Assembly (NCBI RefSeq): GCF_003946405.1
Contig: NZ_RHOG01000003.1
Location: 1-64,000, forward strand
Length of the DNA stretch: 64,000 bases
From: Lacticaseibacillus yichunensis
Lineage (GTDB): Bacteria; Bacillota; Bacilli; Lactobacillales; Lactobacillaceae
Direction: 5' to 3'
Shown here: piece after piece, positions 44,150 to 49,169 of the stretch
Layout: every line of letters starts with the position of its first letter
Numbering within the stretch: position 1 is the first letter of the stretch
Program-made: the position numbers and the translations under genes
The notes under the pieces: generated by a model
What the model saw: only the letters and a program-made list of their open reading frames with translations
Database searches by the model: none
Told to the model about the DNA's origin: nothing

Positions 44150-45991
44150 TTATGCGGGATCTTGCCCCCAGATCACCGACGCGATGCTGGCGGCTTCTCG
44201 CAGCGCGACGTCATTGACATACGGTCTTGGGCTTGCCGTGGTCAACCAATGATACCCCTCGGTCGGCACACCCCAGAAAAAGAGCAGCCCCTGGGTGTCT
44301 CGAGCGCTGTTGAGGAGTTGCAGCGTGCGGCGATCGTTGACGACCGCCCCAGATTGGAAACGTCTATCACCTGCAAGCTGGAGTTCATAAAGCGTTGCCA
44401 TGTCATCGTGCAGTAATTGCTGCATCAGCGGGTTTTGGGCAGTCGGCGCATTGGCGGCGGGCACGCGGGCCTCGATCAGGGCGGTGCCACGCGCGCGAAA
44501 GTCTGGGAAGAGCCCGGATGTGACTTCAAACCGGCCTTTTTTTCCAGCGACCTGCATCTGCGGTGGCAGTAAGGTGACGATGCCGGCGTCGCGCAGGGCC
44601 TTGAGTTCCGCGATGCGCACCACCGGCGGGCCAATGGTCAGAAAATCGTTCAGTCCGTTGAACCAGCGCAAAAATTGATCCAGGTACTGGTCATCCGTCA
44701 GCATCCCGCCACTTGCGACGGTCCGCACCACATCCCGCAGATCCCGCCAGACTTCCAGCGCAGCCGTTAACGGGCCATGCTTACTCCCTGCCTTGGCCGC
44801 TTCAATGTCCGCAGGCAGATAGGCATCCAGCAGGCGCTGAAAGGCCGCATTGTCGGCTGGCTTCGGTGGCGCCATCAGTGTCGCCCAATCTAGCCGGTCT
44901 GCTTCCTTGATGGCAAGCGCGCTCACAGCTTTTTCGGGATCCGCCAGCATGCGCAGCTGAAAATCGATGACAGACTGGTCGGGATAGTCTGCCTTTAATA
45001 GAAGCGAATAATAAATGAACTCGGCTTCGTGCTGCAGGCCTTCCCAAAACCAGCTGCTACTGGCGGGCTTTTGCGCACGCATTTTGGCCAGATAGGCAGG
45101 AGTCAAGAAATGCGCAGGCACCAGTTCGCTTGGGCCTTTTTCATTCCGCGCCTTCGCGTGATAAGGCAGGCCGCGCCGCGATCCCGCCAACAGATGCGGT
45201 TCGTTGCCGCTGGGCAGGTAGGTGAGCTGACCATCTTTTTCAACAAAGCGACCGCCGCGCCCCTCCGTCAGCCGCGCTGTGAAGTCAAAGAAACTCAGGC
45301 CCAGCCCGCGCAAAATGACGGTGTCCTCAGTGGTGATGGCGGACAGATCGGGTTCGCTCGGCCAGTTCGGCGGCCAATATTGGAGGTTGTTGGCGGTTGA
45401 AAATTGGGCGAGGACCTCCTGTTCCCGGGTCAGCGTATTCGCACTATTGCCCAGCGCCATGACGACCGCATCAAAGTCGCCGCCATGATGTGCCGCCACC
45501 GTGAACCGCTGGCCATTTTTGCGAACTGCGGTCACTGTTTCTTTCTGGAGGTCGACATAGGACTGTTTGGGTAAGTCGGCGGTCAGCTTGGCGAAAAACC
45601 ATTGCTGGTAGGCGCCATACAGTGCACGGCTGGCATACCCATTTGGTCCAAGCGTGGTCGCCTCGGTCGCCAGGGCGTTGGCCTGCCCGAGGTCATTGCG
45701 CCCGGCGAGATAAGCACTTGCCTCATCACGCGCCCATTCGTACAGACTGGGGCCCGGGGTGAACGGCGCAGGATGGGCGACGGTCTGGTCGTAAAATAGG
45801 GTGATCTGTTGGGCGGCGGTGTTCATGATCAGCTCATGGGGCTGGTCACTTTGCCAGACGCGCCCACCGATGCCATATGGATCAAACAGGGTGATGCTCA
45901 GCGTCGGCTGGAGTGCCACGCGCTGCAGGGCGACCAGCCGCTCAAGCACGAGCAGGCCGCGGGGACCGGCGCCGATCAATGCGATCTGCAT
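44150..45991 (-). CDS. FAD/NAD(P)-binding flavoprotein
   Basis: 613 residues. The N-terminal dinucleotide-binding motif is G-A-G-P-R-G (7-12), followed by F-D-P-Y-G-I-G-G-R-V-W near 36 and M-N-T-A-A-Q-Q near 56, as in the family of large FAD/NAD(P)-binding proteins (FAD_NAD_binding_9 type). These are widespread in lactic acid bacteria and of unknown substrate; some relatives are amine N-hydroxylases or oxidoreductases. AAGGAGG lies nine bases before the ATG. Single-gene unit; the terminator is at 44015-44043. Confidence 0.8.
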   Translation of the reverse strand: MQIALIGAGPRGLLVLERLVALQRVALQPTLSITLFDPYGIGGRVWQSDQPHELIMNTAAQQITLFYDQTVAHPAPFTPGPSLYEWARDEASAYLAGRNDLGQANALATEATTLGPNGYASRALYGAYQQWFFAKLTADLPKQSYVDLQKETVTAVRKNGQRFTVAAHHGGDFDAVVMALGNSANTLTREQEVLAQFSTANNLQYWPPNWPSEPDLSAITTEDTVILRGLGLSFFDFTARLTEGRGGRFVEKDGQLTYLPSGNEPHLLAGSRRGLPYHAKARNEKGPSELVPAHFLTPAYLAKMRAQKPASSSWFWEGLQHEAEFIYYSLLLKADYPDQSVIDFQLRMLADPEKAVSALAIKEADRLDWATLMAPPKPADNAAFQRLLDAYLPADIEAAKAGSKHGPLTAALEVWRDLRDVVRTVASGGMLTDDQYLDQFLRWFNGLNDFLTIGPPVVRIAELKALRDAGIVTLLPPQMQVAGKKGRFEVTSGLFPDFRARGTALIEARVPAANAPTAQNPLMQQLLHDDMATLYELQLAGDRRFQSGAVVNDRRTLQLLNSARDTQGLLFFWGVPTEGYHWLTTASPRPYVNDVALREAASIASVIWGQDPA

Positions 45992-46349
45992 ATAATGATG
46001 CCTCCTTCTTCATCAGACGTGAAATTTGGCGGCGACGTGCGTCACAACGCAGATAGCCACCTCTGGCGTCAGTATAGCTGGAAAGAAGGGGGCTTGGGAA
46101 GCAAAGAGACTTGGGGTCATTATGGAGATAAACAATAAAATCAGCATCATACAGCTGTCTCGCGATGGCAGAGTGAGACGGTCGGTATTGTTGATACTTC
46201 ATTGTGCTTTTTGAAGCTGGATTACACGACGGCTTAAGCAAAGAGAACTTGTTTTTTTGCCAATGAATTTAACTACGGGAACTACAAATCCGGATTTTGG
46301 CGAGTGAAAGGTTGTTGAACAACGGTTATTGATGGCATTCGTTTCAGAT
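45992..46349. other. Intergenic region entering the AT-rich island
   Basis: 358 bp without a believable gene. On the minus strand an ATACT-type -10 (about 46072-46067) may serve the flavoprotein gene. From about 46130 base composition shifts clearly towards A and T. No repeat of the stem-loop family is present. Confidence 0.4.
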
Positions 46350-46544
46350 TTATTTAAATCGTTTCTCATGACCCTCTTTCCTGAAGAAGGCTTCAGCTGT
46401 TAACATAATCAATAAGAATGTGCCGGCACCAAACACAATCTTAGTCAGCTCTAAACTGCCGTTAACGAAACACTGTGTGAGTAAGGCCGACACGAAGTAT
46501 GCACCTACCAAGAGAATTGTTTTGCGGTATCGAATTGTTTTCAT
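46350..46544 (-). CDS. Small two-segment membrane protein, possible immunity protein
   Basis: 64 residues with two membrane segments (about 8-27 and 33-52) and basic ends. AAAGGAG precedes the ATG. It is divergent from a secreted bacteriocin-like protein and shares its control region. Its size and topology are those of many bacteriocin immunity proteins, but no family match is visible, so this is inference from context. Codon use is AT-rich like its neighbour. Confidence 0.55.
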   Translation of the reverse strand: MKTIRYRKTILLVGAYFVSALLTQCFVNGSLELTKIVFGAGTFLLIMLTAEAFFRKEGHEKRFK

Positions 46545-46571
46545 GGAATAGCTCCTTTCTGACCTGAGTTA

Positions 46572-46604
46572 ATTATATACCAGCCGGGTTGGAAAGCGCT
46601 TGCA
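46572..46604. promoter_or_regulatory. Divergent control region with a cre-like site
   Basis: Minus-strand TATAAT (46577-46572) for the small membrane protein. GGAAAGCGCTTGCA (46591-46604) fits 12 of 14 cre positions on either strand. The secreted-protein promoter on the plus strand is less clear (TTGCAT at about 46600, TAATCT about 18 bp further). Confidence 0.45.
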
Positions 46605-46665
46605 TATATATGGTTAAACGCATTAATCTTATTTTGCACAAAAAATAAAGCTTGGAGGTCTTCCG

Positions 46666-47331
46666 ATGAAAAAGAGTATTGTGTCCTTCATTACTGTTGT
46701 TATTTTAGCTTCGGCAATTGCACCCGCAACACCTATTTTTGCAGCGGAGTCTGAGACAGCAACAGCCGCCACATCGCAAAGTGTCGTTCATCCTTCCGAC
46801 ATGAGCTTTTTACCTGGTATCACGCTTTCCGAAAAGACAGCAACTGTTCAACATGCTATCACTGAGCTGGATCCTTACGTTAGAGTCGTCGAGAATCAAT
46901 TTGTATTGGATATTCCTCAGAATCTGGAGGTGGATGCGACAGCCCTTCAAGAAGCTAGAATGCTAATCGTTAAAACCAACCAAGTTATCTCGGACAACAA
47001 AGCCACCATCGATGTTGCTACAAGGACAGCAACATTTACCAGCACAACTCACGATACCGCAAGCCGTCTTAGATATAAGAACGGCCTCAGCAAGGTAACG
47101 GTACACTGGAATTTTGTGCGAATTTATATTTCAAAAAGCGACCTTATAGGCGTTCAAGCCGGCCTTTTAGCTGGGTTAGGGGTTTTAGTGGGAAAGGTGC
47201 CTGATGTGCGAGTAGAATTTGTAGCCGCGGCGCTAATCGGCTTTATCGGGATGCTGACCCCTCCTGGTGGCATTTGGGCGGACTATAATTATTTGCTGGG
47301 ATTTTCGCAGGGTTCCTGGGGTTGGCAATAG
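46666..47331 (+). CDS. Secreted bacteriocin-like protein
   Basis: 221 residues with a clear signal peptide (about 1-27, cut near I-F-A-A). The mature part is Thr/Ala/Val-rich with T-x-T repeats to about 150. A C-terminal hydrophobic, Gly-rich region follows (L-L-A-G-L-G-V-L-V-G-K, then A-A-L-I-G-F-I-G-M-L-T-P-P-G-G-I-W-A-D-Y-N-Y) and the protein ends S-W-G-W-Q. A Gly-rich membrane-active tail ending in Trp is reminiscent of pore-forming peptides. TTGGAGGTC precedes the ATG. The gene is AT-rich against a GC-rich genome, suggesting transfer. Could instead be a cell-surface protein of unknown role. Confidence 0.6.
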   Translation: MKKSIVSFITVVILASAIAPATPIFAAESETATAATSQSVVHPSDMSFLPGITLSEKTATVQHAITELDPYVRVVENQFVLDIPQNLEVDATALQEARMLIVKTNQVISDNKATIDVATRTATFTSTTHDTASRLRYKNGLSKVTVHWNFVRIYISKSDLIGVQAGLLAGLGVLVGKVPDVRVEFVAAALIGFIGMLTPPGGIWADYNYLLGFSQGSWGWQ

Positions 47332-47383
47332 CGCATAACCAGTATCTTGTGTGGGGCGATATTCTGATGTAACTGTCAACGTG

Positions 47384-47428
47384 TGGGTGGCGCTTCGTCT
47401 CTTATTGGATGAGGTGTCGCCCATTTTT
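47384..47428 (+). terminator. Terminator after the secreted protein gene
   Basis: Imperfect stem GGGTGGCGC.../...GTCGCCC followed by six T. Confidence 0.6.
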
Positions 47429-47711
47429 TGTGTTCTGGGATAAGCTGTTACATATTTTTCAATTTTGCGTGTTGTTATCTTTCGTTCAGAATTGTTCATT
47501 TCGGCTATGACTCTTCACGGTATAAGTAATTGACTGTAGACAATCATATTCTGTTCTTAATTGTCGAGATAGCTGGGTCAGTACGGTAGATCAAAGACAG
47601 ACAGTCGGCCTGGCTCTTTGTGGGTGCGGTGCGCCAGCAATCATTCAGTGGACACTATTTACCCAGACATACACATTCGCTATGGACACCTCATACTGTC
47701 GCCCCAAATTT
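47429..47711. other. AT-rich spacer
   Basis: No gene, tRNA or repeat recognised. It probably marks the right edge of the AT-rich island; base composition returns to the genome average after about 47770. Confidence 0.4.
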
Positions 47712-47740
47712 TTGCGTTGCCTGTGTCTGTGCGCTAAGAT
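47712..47740 (+). promoter_or_regulatory. Promoter of the NADH oxidase gene
   Basis: TTGCGT (47712-47717) and TAAGAT (47735-47740) with 17 bp between. Confidence 0.5.
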
Positions 47741-47810
47741 AATGGTAATGTACCCTTTTTATCGACTTGGGTTGCGGCTGAGGCCGCCAGTAAAGTGAGG
47801 ACGACGAATT

Positions 47811-49169
47811 ATGAAGATCGCAGTGATCGGCTGTACCCATGCCGGGACCGCCGCCGTTCAGGAAATTATGCGGACCCATCCAGACGCCGCAGTCGATGTT
47901 TTCGAGCGGCGTGGCGACATCTCGTTTTTATCCTGCGGCATTTATCTTTATCTTGAAGGCGTGGTTGAAGATCCAACGACGCTGTTTTACGCGGACGCAC
48001 CTGGGTTGGCGGCACTTGGCCCAAATGTGCGCCTGTTCATGCGCCATGATGTCCTCAGCATCGATGCGGCGACCCATACGCTTCAGGTGCAAAACATGCA
48101 GACGCAGGCGACTTTTGCGGAAAACTACGACAAGTTGATCTTCTGCACCGGCAGTTACCCCGTTGTGCCGCCGGTTCAGGGGGTCAGCTTGCCGCGGGTG
48201 TTGATGTGCAAAAATTATGACGATGCGATCGCCATCAAGGAAAGCGCAAAGGATGCGGAGACGATCGCAGTGATCGGCGGGGGCTACATTGGCGTGGAGC
48301 TTGCGGAGGCGTACAGCCACACTGGCCACAAGGTGATCTTGATCAATGGTGTCCACGGCTTGCTTAGCCATTACGTCGATGACGAGCTGGCCGGCGTGAT
48401 CGCCGCGGATCTCAGGGCGCATCACGTTGAGGTGGTCCTCGATGAGGTCGCGCTCAAGTTTGACAGCGATGAGACTCACGTTTATGTGCGCACCGATAAA
48501 GGCGAGCATCAGGCGGATCTGGCGGTCGTCTGCACCGGTTTTCAGCCGATGACGGAGCTACTGGACGACCAGGTGAAAATGAATCCGGACCGCTCGATTC
48601 ATGTGAACGACTACATGCAGACCAGCAACTCCGATATTTATGCGGCCGGGGATACCGTGGCCGTCCACTACAATCCAACTGGCCGTGATGCCTACGCGCC
48701 GCTTGCCACAAATGCTGTGCGCCAAGGAAAATTGGCGGGGATCAATGTTTTTGGCAATAAGGTCAAATACATGGGGACCCAGGCGACCAGTGCGCTTCGG
48801 CTGTATGACAAAACCATGGCGTGCACGGGGATGACGCTGAAGCGCGCCCGCAATCACGGCTTTGAGGCGGATACGGTGACGCTGACCGACAATTACCGGC
48901 CGGAGTTCATGCCGACCACCGCGCCGGTGACGATGGCGCTTGTGTGGGACAAGGAAAGCCGCCAGATTCTTGGCGCGCAACTTTATTCTTCCTATGATAT
49001 CGCGCAGTCGGCAAACCTCTTGTCGGTGATGATTCAAAATCGCAACACGATCGATGACCTGGCATATGTCGACATGTTGTTCAATCCGAATTATGATAAA
49101 CCTTGGAACTACCTCAATTTGCTCGGACAAGCGGCGGTCGCGGAAGCGGATCGTCAGAATAAAAGGTGA
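47811..49169 (+). CDS. nox: NADH oxidase (FAD-dependent, Nox/Npr family)
   Basis: 452 residues. FAD motif G-C-T-H-A-G (7-12) with His10, redox Cys42 in F-L-S-C-G-I-Y, a second dinucleotide motif G-G-G-Y-I-G-V-E near 160, and A-A-G-D-T near 280. These are the marks of water-forming NADH oxidases and the close NADH peroxidases; the oxidase is commoner in lactobacilli. It regenerates NAD+ with oxygen in the cytoplasm. The ATG has only a weak GTGAGGA site. The stop overlaps the first GTG of the next frame, so the two genes are co-transcribed. Confidence 0.9.
   Translation: MKIAVIGCTHAGTAAVQEIMRTHPDAAVDVFERRGDISFLSCGIYLYLEGVVEDPTTLFYADAPGLAALGPNVRLFMRHDVLSIDAATHTLQVQNMQTQATFAENYDKLIFCTGSYPVVPPVQGVSLPRVLMCKNYDDAIAIKESAKDAETIAVIGGGYIGVELAEAYSHTGHKVILINGVHGLLSHYVDDELAGVIAADLRAHHVEVVLDEVALKFDSDETHVYVRTDKGEHQADLAVVCTGFQPMTELLDDQVKMNPDRSIHVNDYMQTSNSDIYAAGDTVAVHYNPTGRDAYAPLATNAVRQGKLAGINVFGNKVKYMGTQATSALRLYDKTMACTGMTLKRARNHGFEADTVTLTDNYRPEFMPTTAPVTMALVWDKESRQILGAQLYSSYDIAQSANLLSVMIQNRNTIDDLAYVDMLFNPNYDKPWNYLNLLGQAAVAEADRQNKR

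What the first reader, a model, noticed from the sequence alone, without database searches (positions are those of the whole stretch)
46130..47770. AT-rich island with a secreted bacteriocin-like protein and a small membrane partner
Base composition drops sharply compared with its surroundings. A 221-residue secreted protein has a Gly-rich hydrophobic C-terminus ending S-W-G-W-Q, and a divergent 64-residue two-segment membrane protein could be its immunity protein. A cre-like site lies between them. I recognise no known bacteriocin class.
Basis: partly seen in the sequence, partly recalled or inferred. Interest (0 to 1): 0.62.

Follow-up and report, generated by a model that had tools for sequence, protein, structure and literature searches.

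The report
Unnamed bacteriocin-like secreted protein–immunity pair
A recently acquired two-gene island encodes an exported protein with a hydrophobic tail and a tiny membrane protein, a pairing repeated on plasmids, phages and chromosomes of many Gram-positive bacteria, most likely an undescribed family of bacteria-killing proteins with their antidotes.

Summary
The island is 46116-47701: 43.6% GC, the lowest of 625 overlapping stretches of that size. A sister genome with flanks 94.6% and 96.4% identical lacks it. In 18 same-genus genomes the flanking genes lie 136-430 bp apart, against 1,819 bp here.

The 221-aa protein has no significant Pfam, NCBIfam, PHROG or PADLOC match. It belongs to an unnamed family: 32 of 395 order-level and 18 of 398 class-level genomes, its own included, and only its own among 398 at phylum level. 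Members occur on plasmids and in Listeria phage A500 (gp27).

Its two-segment membrane partner is a family feature: 43 of 55 family loci have such a neighbour against 5 of 69 control genes. The nearest relative shares both proteins (48% and 51% identity) and the divergent layout, on a small plasmid.

Best reading: a Sec-exported proprotein with a pro-region and an ~82-residue hydrophobic head, paired with an immunity protein. Family, pairing and mobility are shown. Export, killing, processing and immunity are inferred. It resembles EntV and SdpC in layout, not in sequence.

The parts
46116..47701 (.). Horizontally acquired island (1,586 bp) between a FAD/NAD-binding protein gene and a NADH-oxidase-like gene
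   Evidence: absent from sister genome G021, 199 other bp there; flank genes 136-430 bp apart in 18 same-genus genomes; lowest GC of 625 overlapping stretches
46666..47331 (+). 221-aa bacteriocin-like preproprotein
   Evidence: family
46666..46743 (+). Sec-type signal peptide, residues 1-26 (judged by eye, no signal-peptide program run)
   Evidence: sequence; 21 of 21 family rows of at least 170 aa in A3 have a hydrophobic N-terminal core
46744..47082 (+). Pro-region, residues 27-139, acidic (pI 5.0)
   Evidence: residues 61-120 predicted with block pLDDT 77-93, residues 128-140 under 50
47083..47328 (+). Putative killing head, residues 140-221: HWNFVRIY strand pair, Gly-rich hydrophobic helices, GGIWADYN strand, C-terminal WGWQ
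   Evidence: alignment A3, where all 22 rows end in Q; weak strand-strand-helix-helix-strand-strand models
46350..46544 (-). 64-aa two-segment membrane protein, putative immunity protein
   Evidence: 51% identical to the partner in G073
46545..46665 (.). Divergent promoter region between the two genes
   Evidence: divergent layout also in L009, L011, L035, L082, L085; no consensus sigma-70 promoter found there
46591..46604 (+). cre-like site, one mismatch; function unsupported
47383..47424 (+). Terminator-like hairpin (18 pairs, then TTTTT) after the 221-aa gene

Best explanation
The island is a self-contained toxin-immunity cassette. The 221-aa protein is exported by the Sec pathway and its signal peptide is removed. 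The acidic pro-region (residues ~27-139) keeps the hydrophobic C-terminal ~82 residues soluble and harmless until it is cut off in the linker near residue 139. The freed head (two beta-strand pairs around Gly-rich hydrophobic helices, ending WGWQ) inserts in the membrane of related bacteria and permeabilises or blocks it. The divergently transcribed 64-aa two-segment membrane protein sits in the producer's membrane and protects it. Shown here: the family, the pairing, the divergent layout, mobility, and conservation to the last residue. Inferred: export, the cut, membrane insertion, killing and immunity.
For: Pairing with a 45-95 aa, 2-3-segment ORF: 43 of 55 family loci against 5 of 69 control ORFs in the same loci, and 7 of 8 further loci. 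Nearest-neighbour partners agree with nearest-neighbour long proteins in 10 of 23 pairs, reached in 0 of 5,000 permutations. The nearest relative keeps both proteins and the divergent layout on a small plasmid with rep-like and mob-like genes (those names are my reading). A 2,297-bp Mammaliicoccus plasmid carries essentially a rep-like gene plus this pair ('rep-like' is my reading). The pair lies in Listeria phage A500 (gp27, gp29) between endolysin and attP. A partner by the rule stands beside 7 of 10 assessed broken or truncated long genes. L005 and L037 carry a weakly EntV-like cassette next door. AgrC-like kinases (under that model's cut-off) lie beside L012, L026 and L027, and an Rgg-type regulator beside L038.
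Against: No activity data. Pairing is not universal: 12 of 55 loci fail the rule, five of them (L024, L036, L046, L052, L054) without a convincing partner while the long frame is open. Partners beside broken genes (7 of 10) are no commoner than overall (43 of 55). Pair distances show no overall rank correlation for the full protein (rho 0.04 and 0.05) or for the head (0.07 and -0.01); only the pro-region shows some (0.15, reached in 57 of 2,000 permutations; 0.20, in 21 of 5,000). So a fit between head and partner, which dedicated immunity predicts, is not visible beyond close relatives. Both models are weak (pLDDT 59 and 62) and match no solved fold. The cut site is a guess from a disordered linker. 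Regulators were hand-picked neighbours, not a survey.
Confidence: 0.68

Rival explanations
1. Lysogenic-conversion or plasmid-benefit pair: the exported protein and membrane protein change the carrier's own envelope, for example blocking superinfection or conjugation, rather than killing neighbours.
For: Members lie in phage A500 between endolysin and attP and on many plasmids.
Against: No PADLOC match. Several members lie on megabase contigs. Partners stand beside 7 of 10 broken long genes, as an antidote could, though that rate is not above the overall one. The pro-region plus hydrophobic head looks like a precursor.
Confidence: 0.13
2. Signalling pair: the secreted protein is a precursor of a peptide signal and the small membrane protein helps process or sense it.
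For: AgrC-like and Rgg-type regulators lie beside four of the loci.
Against: The regulators are separate genes and none lies in this island; how common they are elsewhere was not counted. A head of about 80 residues conserved to the C-terminus is unlike known peptide pheromones (recalled).
Confidence: 0.08
3. Secreted protein acting on an animal or plant host or on other matter, with an unrelated small membrane neighbour.
For: Some carriers are animal isolates.
Against: Carriers also come from kefir, kimchi, beer and soil. The membrane neighbour recurs.
Confidence: 0.06

Closest known systems
EntV / enterocin O16 of Enterococcus faecalis
   Same: Sec-type precursor (170 aa) whose C-terminal 68 residues are the active peptide after protease cleavage (passages of PMC6606811); a weakly EntV-like cassette adjoins two family loci
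   Different: No match of the window protein to the EntV model at E up to 1; different head sequence
SdpC (sporulation-delaying protein) of Bacillus subtilis
   Same: About 200-aa secreted precursor with a hydrophobic toxin segment and a membrane immunity protein (recalled)
   Different: No SdpC match at E up to 1; no TIGR04032 hit in this genome while the B. subtilis control rings; SdpI is a larger membrane protein (recalled)
Listeria phage A500 gp27 and gp29
   Same: Family member with a downstream 60-aa two-segment partner
   Different: Annotated only as gp27 and gp29; tandem, not divergent; phage-borne
Class II bacteriocins of lactic acid bacteria
   Same: Small hydrophobic Gly-rich head and small membrane immunity protein (recalled)
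   Different: Here a long pro-region and Sec-like signal rather than a short double-glycine leader; no ABC exporter gene in the island

Membership tests
EntV family (NF058576) | Match to the family model | tested here: not met
   No hit of the 221-aa protein at E up to 1, while two neighbours of relatives do hit that model weakly
SdpC family (TIGR04032) | Match to the family model | tested here: not met
   No hit; none in the whole genome while the B. subtilis control rings
Double-glycine-leader class II bacteriocins | Short leader ending GG before the head | tested here: not met
   Sequence: residues 1-26 look like a Sec-type signal, followed by a 113-residue region with a single Gly
The unnamed family described here | Signal, pro-region with LDPYV..NQ(F/Y)VL, H-W-N motif, GxWxDYN, C-terminal Q | tested here: met
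   Alignments A1 and A3; last residue Q in 22 of 22
The unnamed family described here | Adjacent 45-95 aa two- or three-segment membrane protein | tested here: met
   Window pair passes; 43 of 55 family loci, the window's own included
Bacteriocins in general | Kills or inhibits bacteria, producer immune | not testable with these tools
   needs bench work
Pfam-A, PHROG and PADLOC families | Significant match | tested here: not met
   None in Pfam and PADLOC at E up to 1; best PHROG E 0.11
Any solved fold | Structural match | tested here: inconclusive
   Weak models; no Foldseek E under 0.001, best VIA Z 3.2

The most novel reading that the evidence does not exclude
A previously unrecognised class of Sec-exported, pro-region-guarded bacteriocins spread through Bacilli: a shared N-terminal region carries a fast-diverging hydrophobic head, each head matched by its own tiny two-segment immunity protein, and the cassettes are moved by minimal plasmids, temperate phages and chromosomal islands.
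Probability: 0.45. Interest if true: 0.76.

Novelty: new variant of a known kind. Interest (0 to 1): 0.64.

Why it matters
If true, a widespread family of antibacterial proteins has been listed as 'hypothetical protein' in food lactobacilli, Listeria and Staphylococcaceae, and as gp27 in Listeria phage A500. It would supply ready-made toxin-immunity pairs for food preservation, help explain the upkeep of tiny cryptic plasmids, and give a new lysogenic-conversion trait to test. The two-gene minimum and the many natural variants make the immunity mechanism directly testable.

Tried and rejected
Scans: the single-protein scan of genome contigs found no relative; the profile found three loci. No match for the window protein in the phage collection, for L016's protein in viral contigs, for the A7 profile in viral contigs, or for L050's protein among plasmids; other queries did find viral members. 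One Corynebacterium plasmid matched the L. kefiranofaciens protein weakly (22% over 107 residues, E 7e-4), outside Bacilli; not followed. No DNA-level match of the island among plasmids. Repeats in the island are few and short.

Weak library hits (NheC, SSL13, Imm61, AaeA, Bor and others) are single and under cut-off; no family matched more than 1 of 22 members. PDB sequence searches gave nothing convincing. VIA rows (prenyltransferases, Z up to 3.2) are below a meaningful match. EntV absence in this genome is uninformative because no control rang.

Pairing count: the rule was written after seeing many loci, and the hydrophobicity threshold was eased from 1.7 to 1.6, so it is not blind. Of 62 loci then held, L005, L039 and L041 were dropped as near-duplicates, L040 for lack of room, and L034, L057 and L058 because no ORF reached E 1e-4. 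Related loci remained (L016, L018, L023; L006, L007; L013, L020; L049, L050; L060, L061), so the Fisher value (8e-17) is only a guide. Of the 8 further loci, four (L063, L064, L084, L085) had not been inspected for partners; 3 of those 4 pass.

Distance correlation failed for head and full protein; only nearest neighbours, and weakly the pro-region, agree. I lowered the novel-case odds from 0.5 to 0.45 when I put the head result beside the pro-region result. The three copies in G073 are read as one ~6.86-kb plasmid assembled as a concatemer, not as amplification. I expected Rgg regulators in L008 and L037; neither hit a model.

Literature: searches returned no papers; some searches returned listings, in which I saw nothing on this family but read only passages of PMC6606811.

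Full report
What is there. The window lies in a 2.56-Mb, 73-contig genome. Between a gene for a FAD/NAD-binding protein (44150-45991, -) and a NADH-oxidase-like gene (47811-49169, +) lies a 1.8-kb stretch. It holds a 221-aa ORF with a signal-like N-terminus (46666-47331, +) and a divergent 64-aa ORF with two hydrophobic segments (46350-46544, -). Good ribosome-binding sites precede both, and an 18-pair terminator-like hairpin follows the long one. No consensus sigma-70 promoter was found in the 121 bp between them.

The island. Of 625 overlapping stretches of equal size, the one at 46101, over the island, has the lowest GC (43.6%; mean 55.7, sd 2.9). Genome G021 matches the left and right flanks at 94.6% and 96.4% nucleotide identity but has 199 other bases instead of these 1,586. 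The left gene is found in 22 of 30 same-genus genomes, the window's own included. Of the other 21, the two flanking genes lie 136-430 bp apart, between match ends, in 18; in G020 and G019 they are far apart, and in G003 I found no pair on one contig; here the gap is 1,819 bp. Neither island protein has a close relative in the genus: the 64-aa protein hits 1 of 30 genomes, its own; the long one hits its own, plus one 30% match over about half of it in G010. A recent gain is the simplest reading.

The family. The 221-aa protein has no significant match in Pfam, NCBIfam, PHROGs or PADLOC, and no Pfam or NCBIfam model matched more than 1 of 22 relatives. tblastn against plasmids gave 27 records, none covering 80% of the query. 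From four full-length proteins I built a profile (A1), which matched 32 of 395 genomes of the order, in 17 of 80 genera. A wider profile (A3, 22 rows) matched 18 of 398 genomes of the class and only the window's own among 398 of the phylum. All three counts include the window's own genome; the lowest rows are weak. The core features are: signal; (L/I)DPYV..NQ(F/Y)VL; a TN motif; then, after a linker, HWN(Y/F)xR(I/V); Gly-rich hydrophobic stretches; G(I/V)WxDYN; and a terminal Q, last residue in 22 of 22 rows. More distant members read YWWG, HWWG or FWWG in place of HWN. Conservation up to the final residue suggests that the C-terminus is the business end and is not trimmed.

The partner. By one rule (45-95 aa, 2-3 hydrophobic segments, within 150 bp downstream on the same strand or within 250 bp divergent) 43 of 55 family loci have a partner: 39 tandem and 5 divergent, one locus having both. 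Of 69 other ORFs in the same loci, 5 do. The loci are partly related and the rule was made after looking, so the p-value is only a guide. Eight further loci gave 7 of 8. Five of the 12 failures hold partner-like ORFs just outside the rule (L027, L031, L032, L044, L055); L007 and L043 are broken genes; L024, L036, L046, L052 and L054 lack a convincing one. The nearest relative (G073) is 48% identical in the long protein and 51% in the small one and has the same divergent layout. Its contig reads as a concatemer of a ~6.86-kb plasmid with rep-like and mob-like genes (those names are my reading). Partner and long protein agree on nearest neighbours in 10 of 23 pairs, reached in 0 of 5,000 permutations, but there is no overall distance correlation for the full protein or for the head; only the pro-region shows a weak one (rho 0.15 and 0.20).

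Broken genes. Where the long gene has a stop, is truncated or lacks a usual start, a partner by the rule stands beside 7 of 10 assessed loci (L008, L010, L023, L029, L035, L056, L065; not L007, L027, L043; L057 not assessed). In four L. kefiranofaciens plasmids only the C-terminal part matches; in the one that I read, pWW2, the first ~140 residues are gone and the partner is intact. An antidote could behave so, but the rate is no higher than the overall rate.

Where it lives. Named carriers include plasmids of Weissella koreensis, L. kefiranofaciens, L. crispatus, L. plantarum (matching over the N-terminal half only), Listeria monocytogenes and L. seeligeri, Nicoliella, Macrococcus (no partner by the rule), and a 2,297-bp Mammaliicoccus sciuri plasmid whose main contents are a 299-aa rep-like protein and the divergent pair. 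Five Listeria phage records carry it, two of them A500 itself; in A500 the pair is gp27 and gp29, between endolysin and attP. Beside the L. crispatus and L. equicursoris copies stands another secreted protein plus small membrane protein that resembles EntV weakly (E 2e-5 and 6e-4, far under cut-off). Of seven hand-picked neighbours, three are AgrC-like kinases (L012, L026, L027; under that model's cut-off), one is an Rgg-type regulator (L038, over the cut-off), one an ABC transporter, and two (L008, L037) hit nothing.

Structure. AlphaFold2 with five sequences gave mean pLDDT 59. Residues 61-120 are good (blocks of 77-93), 128-140 are under 50, and the C-terminal half is weak. The C-terminal 85 residues alone, with seven sequences, gave pLDDT 62 and a similar order of elements: two strands, helices, two strands. 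No solved or viral structure matches convincingly. The fold stays open.

How it probably works. A Sec-exported precursor with an acidic pro-region (pI 5.0) and an 82-residue hydrophobic, slightly basic head (GRAVY 0.64, pI 8.3) is the layout of EntV, where the C-terminal 68 of 170 residues are active after cleavage (PMC6606811, passages), and of SdpC (recalled). I infer cleavage in the linker, insertion in the target membrane, and protection by the two-segment protein. Membership in EntV or SdpC is not met by sequence. The cre-like site would suggest sugar control, but the nearest relative lacks a good one at that place.

Verdict. I found no description of the family in the libraries and papers searched; most listed papers were not read, so this is not proof that it is unpublished.

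Noticed in passing
L005:1954-2815 and L037:115-957: Secreted 192-201-aa protein, weakly EntV-like, followed by an 84-92-aa membrane protein, directly beside the family cassette; in L005 its signal peptide is nearly that of the L. kefiranofaciens family member.
   Followed up: partly
L083 (Listeria phage A500) 3974-4811: gp27 and gp29, annotated without function, are a family pair between endolysin and attP.
   Followed up: partly
L082 (2,297-bp Mammaliicoccus sciuri plasmid): A plasmid of essentially three genes: a rep-like gene, the secreted protein and a divergent unannotated 53-aa membrane protein.
   Followed up: partly
L070 (G073 contig C3, 17,020 bp): Contig looks like 2.5 head-to-tail copies of one ~6.86-kb plasmid, an assembly concatemer.
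   Followed up: partly
L012:3208-3354 (-): 48-aa basic hydrophobic peptide that looks like a leaderless bacteriocin or delta-lysin, near an AgrC-like kinase and the family pair.
   Followed up: no
L013:1048-1293 (+): 81-aa Gly-rich hydrophobic peptide just upstream of a family gene, possibly another bacteriocin.
   Followed up: no
L066 (G021), the 199 bp in place of the island: Sister genome carries other sequence at the same spot, hinting at a replacement or a hot spot.
   Followed up: no
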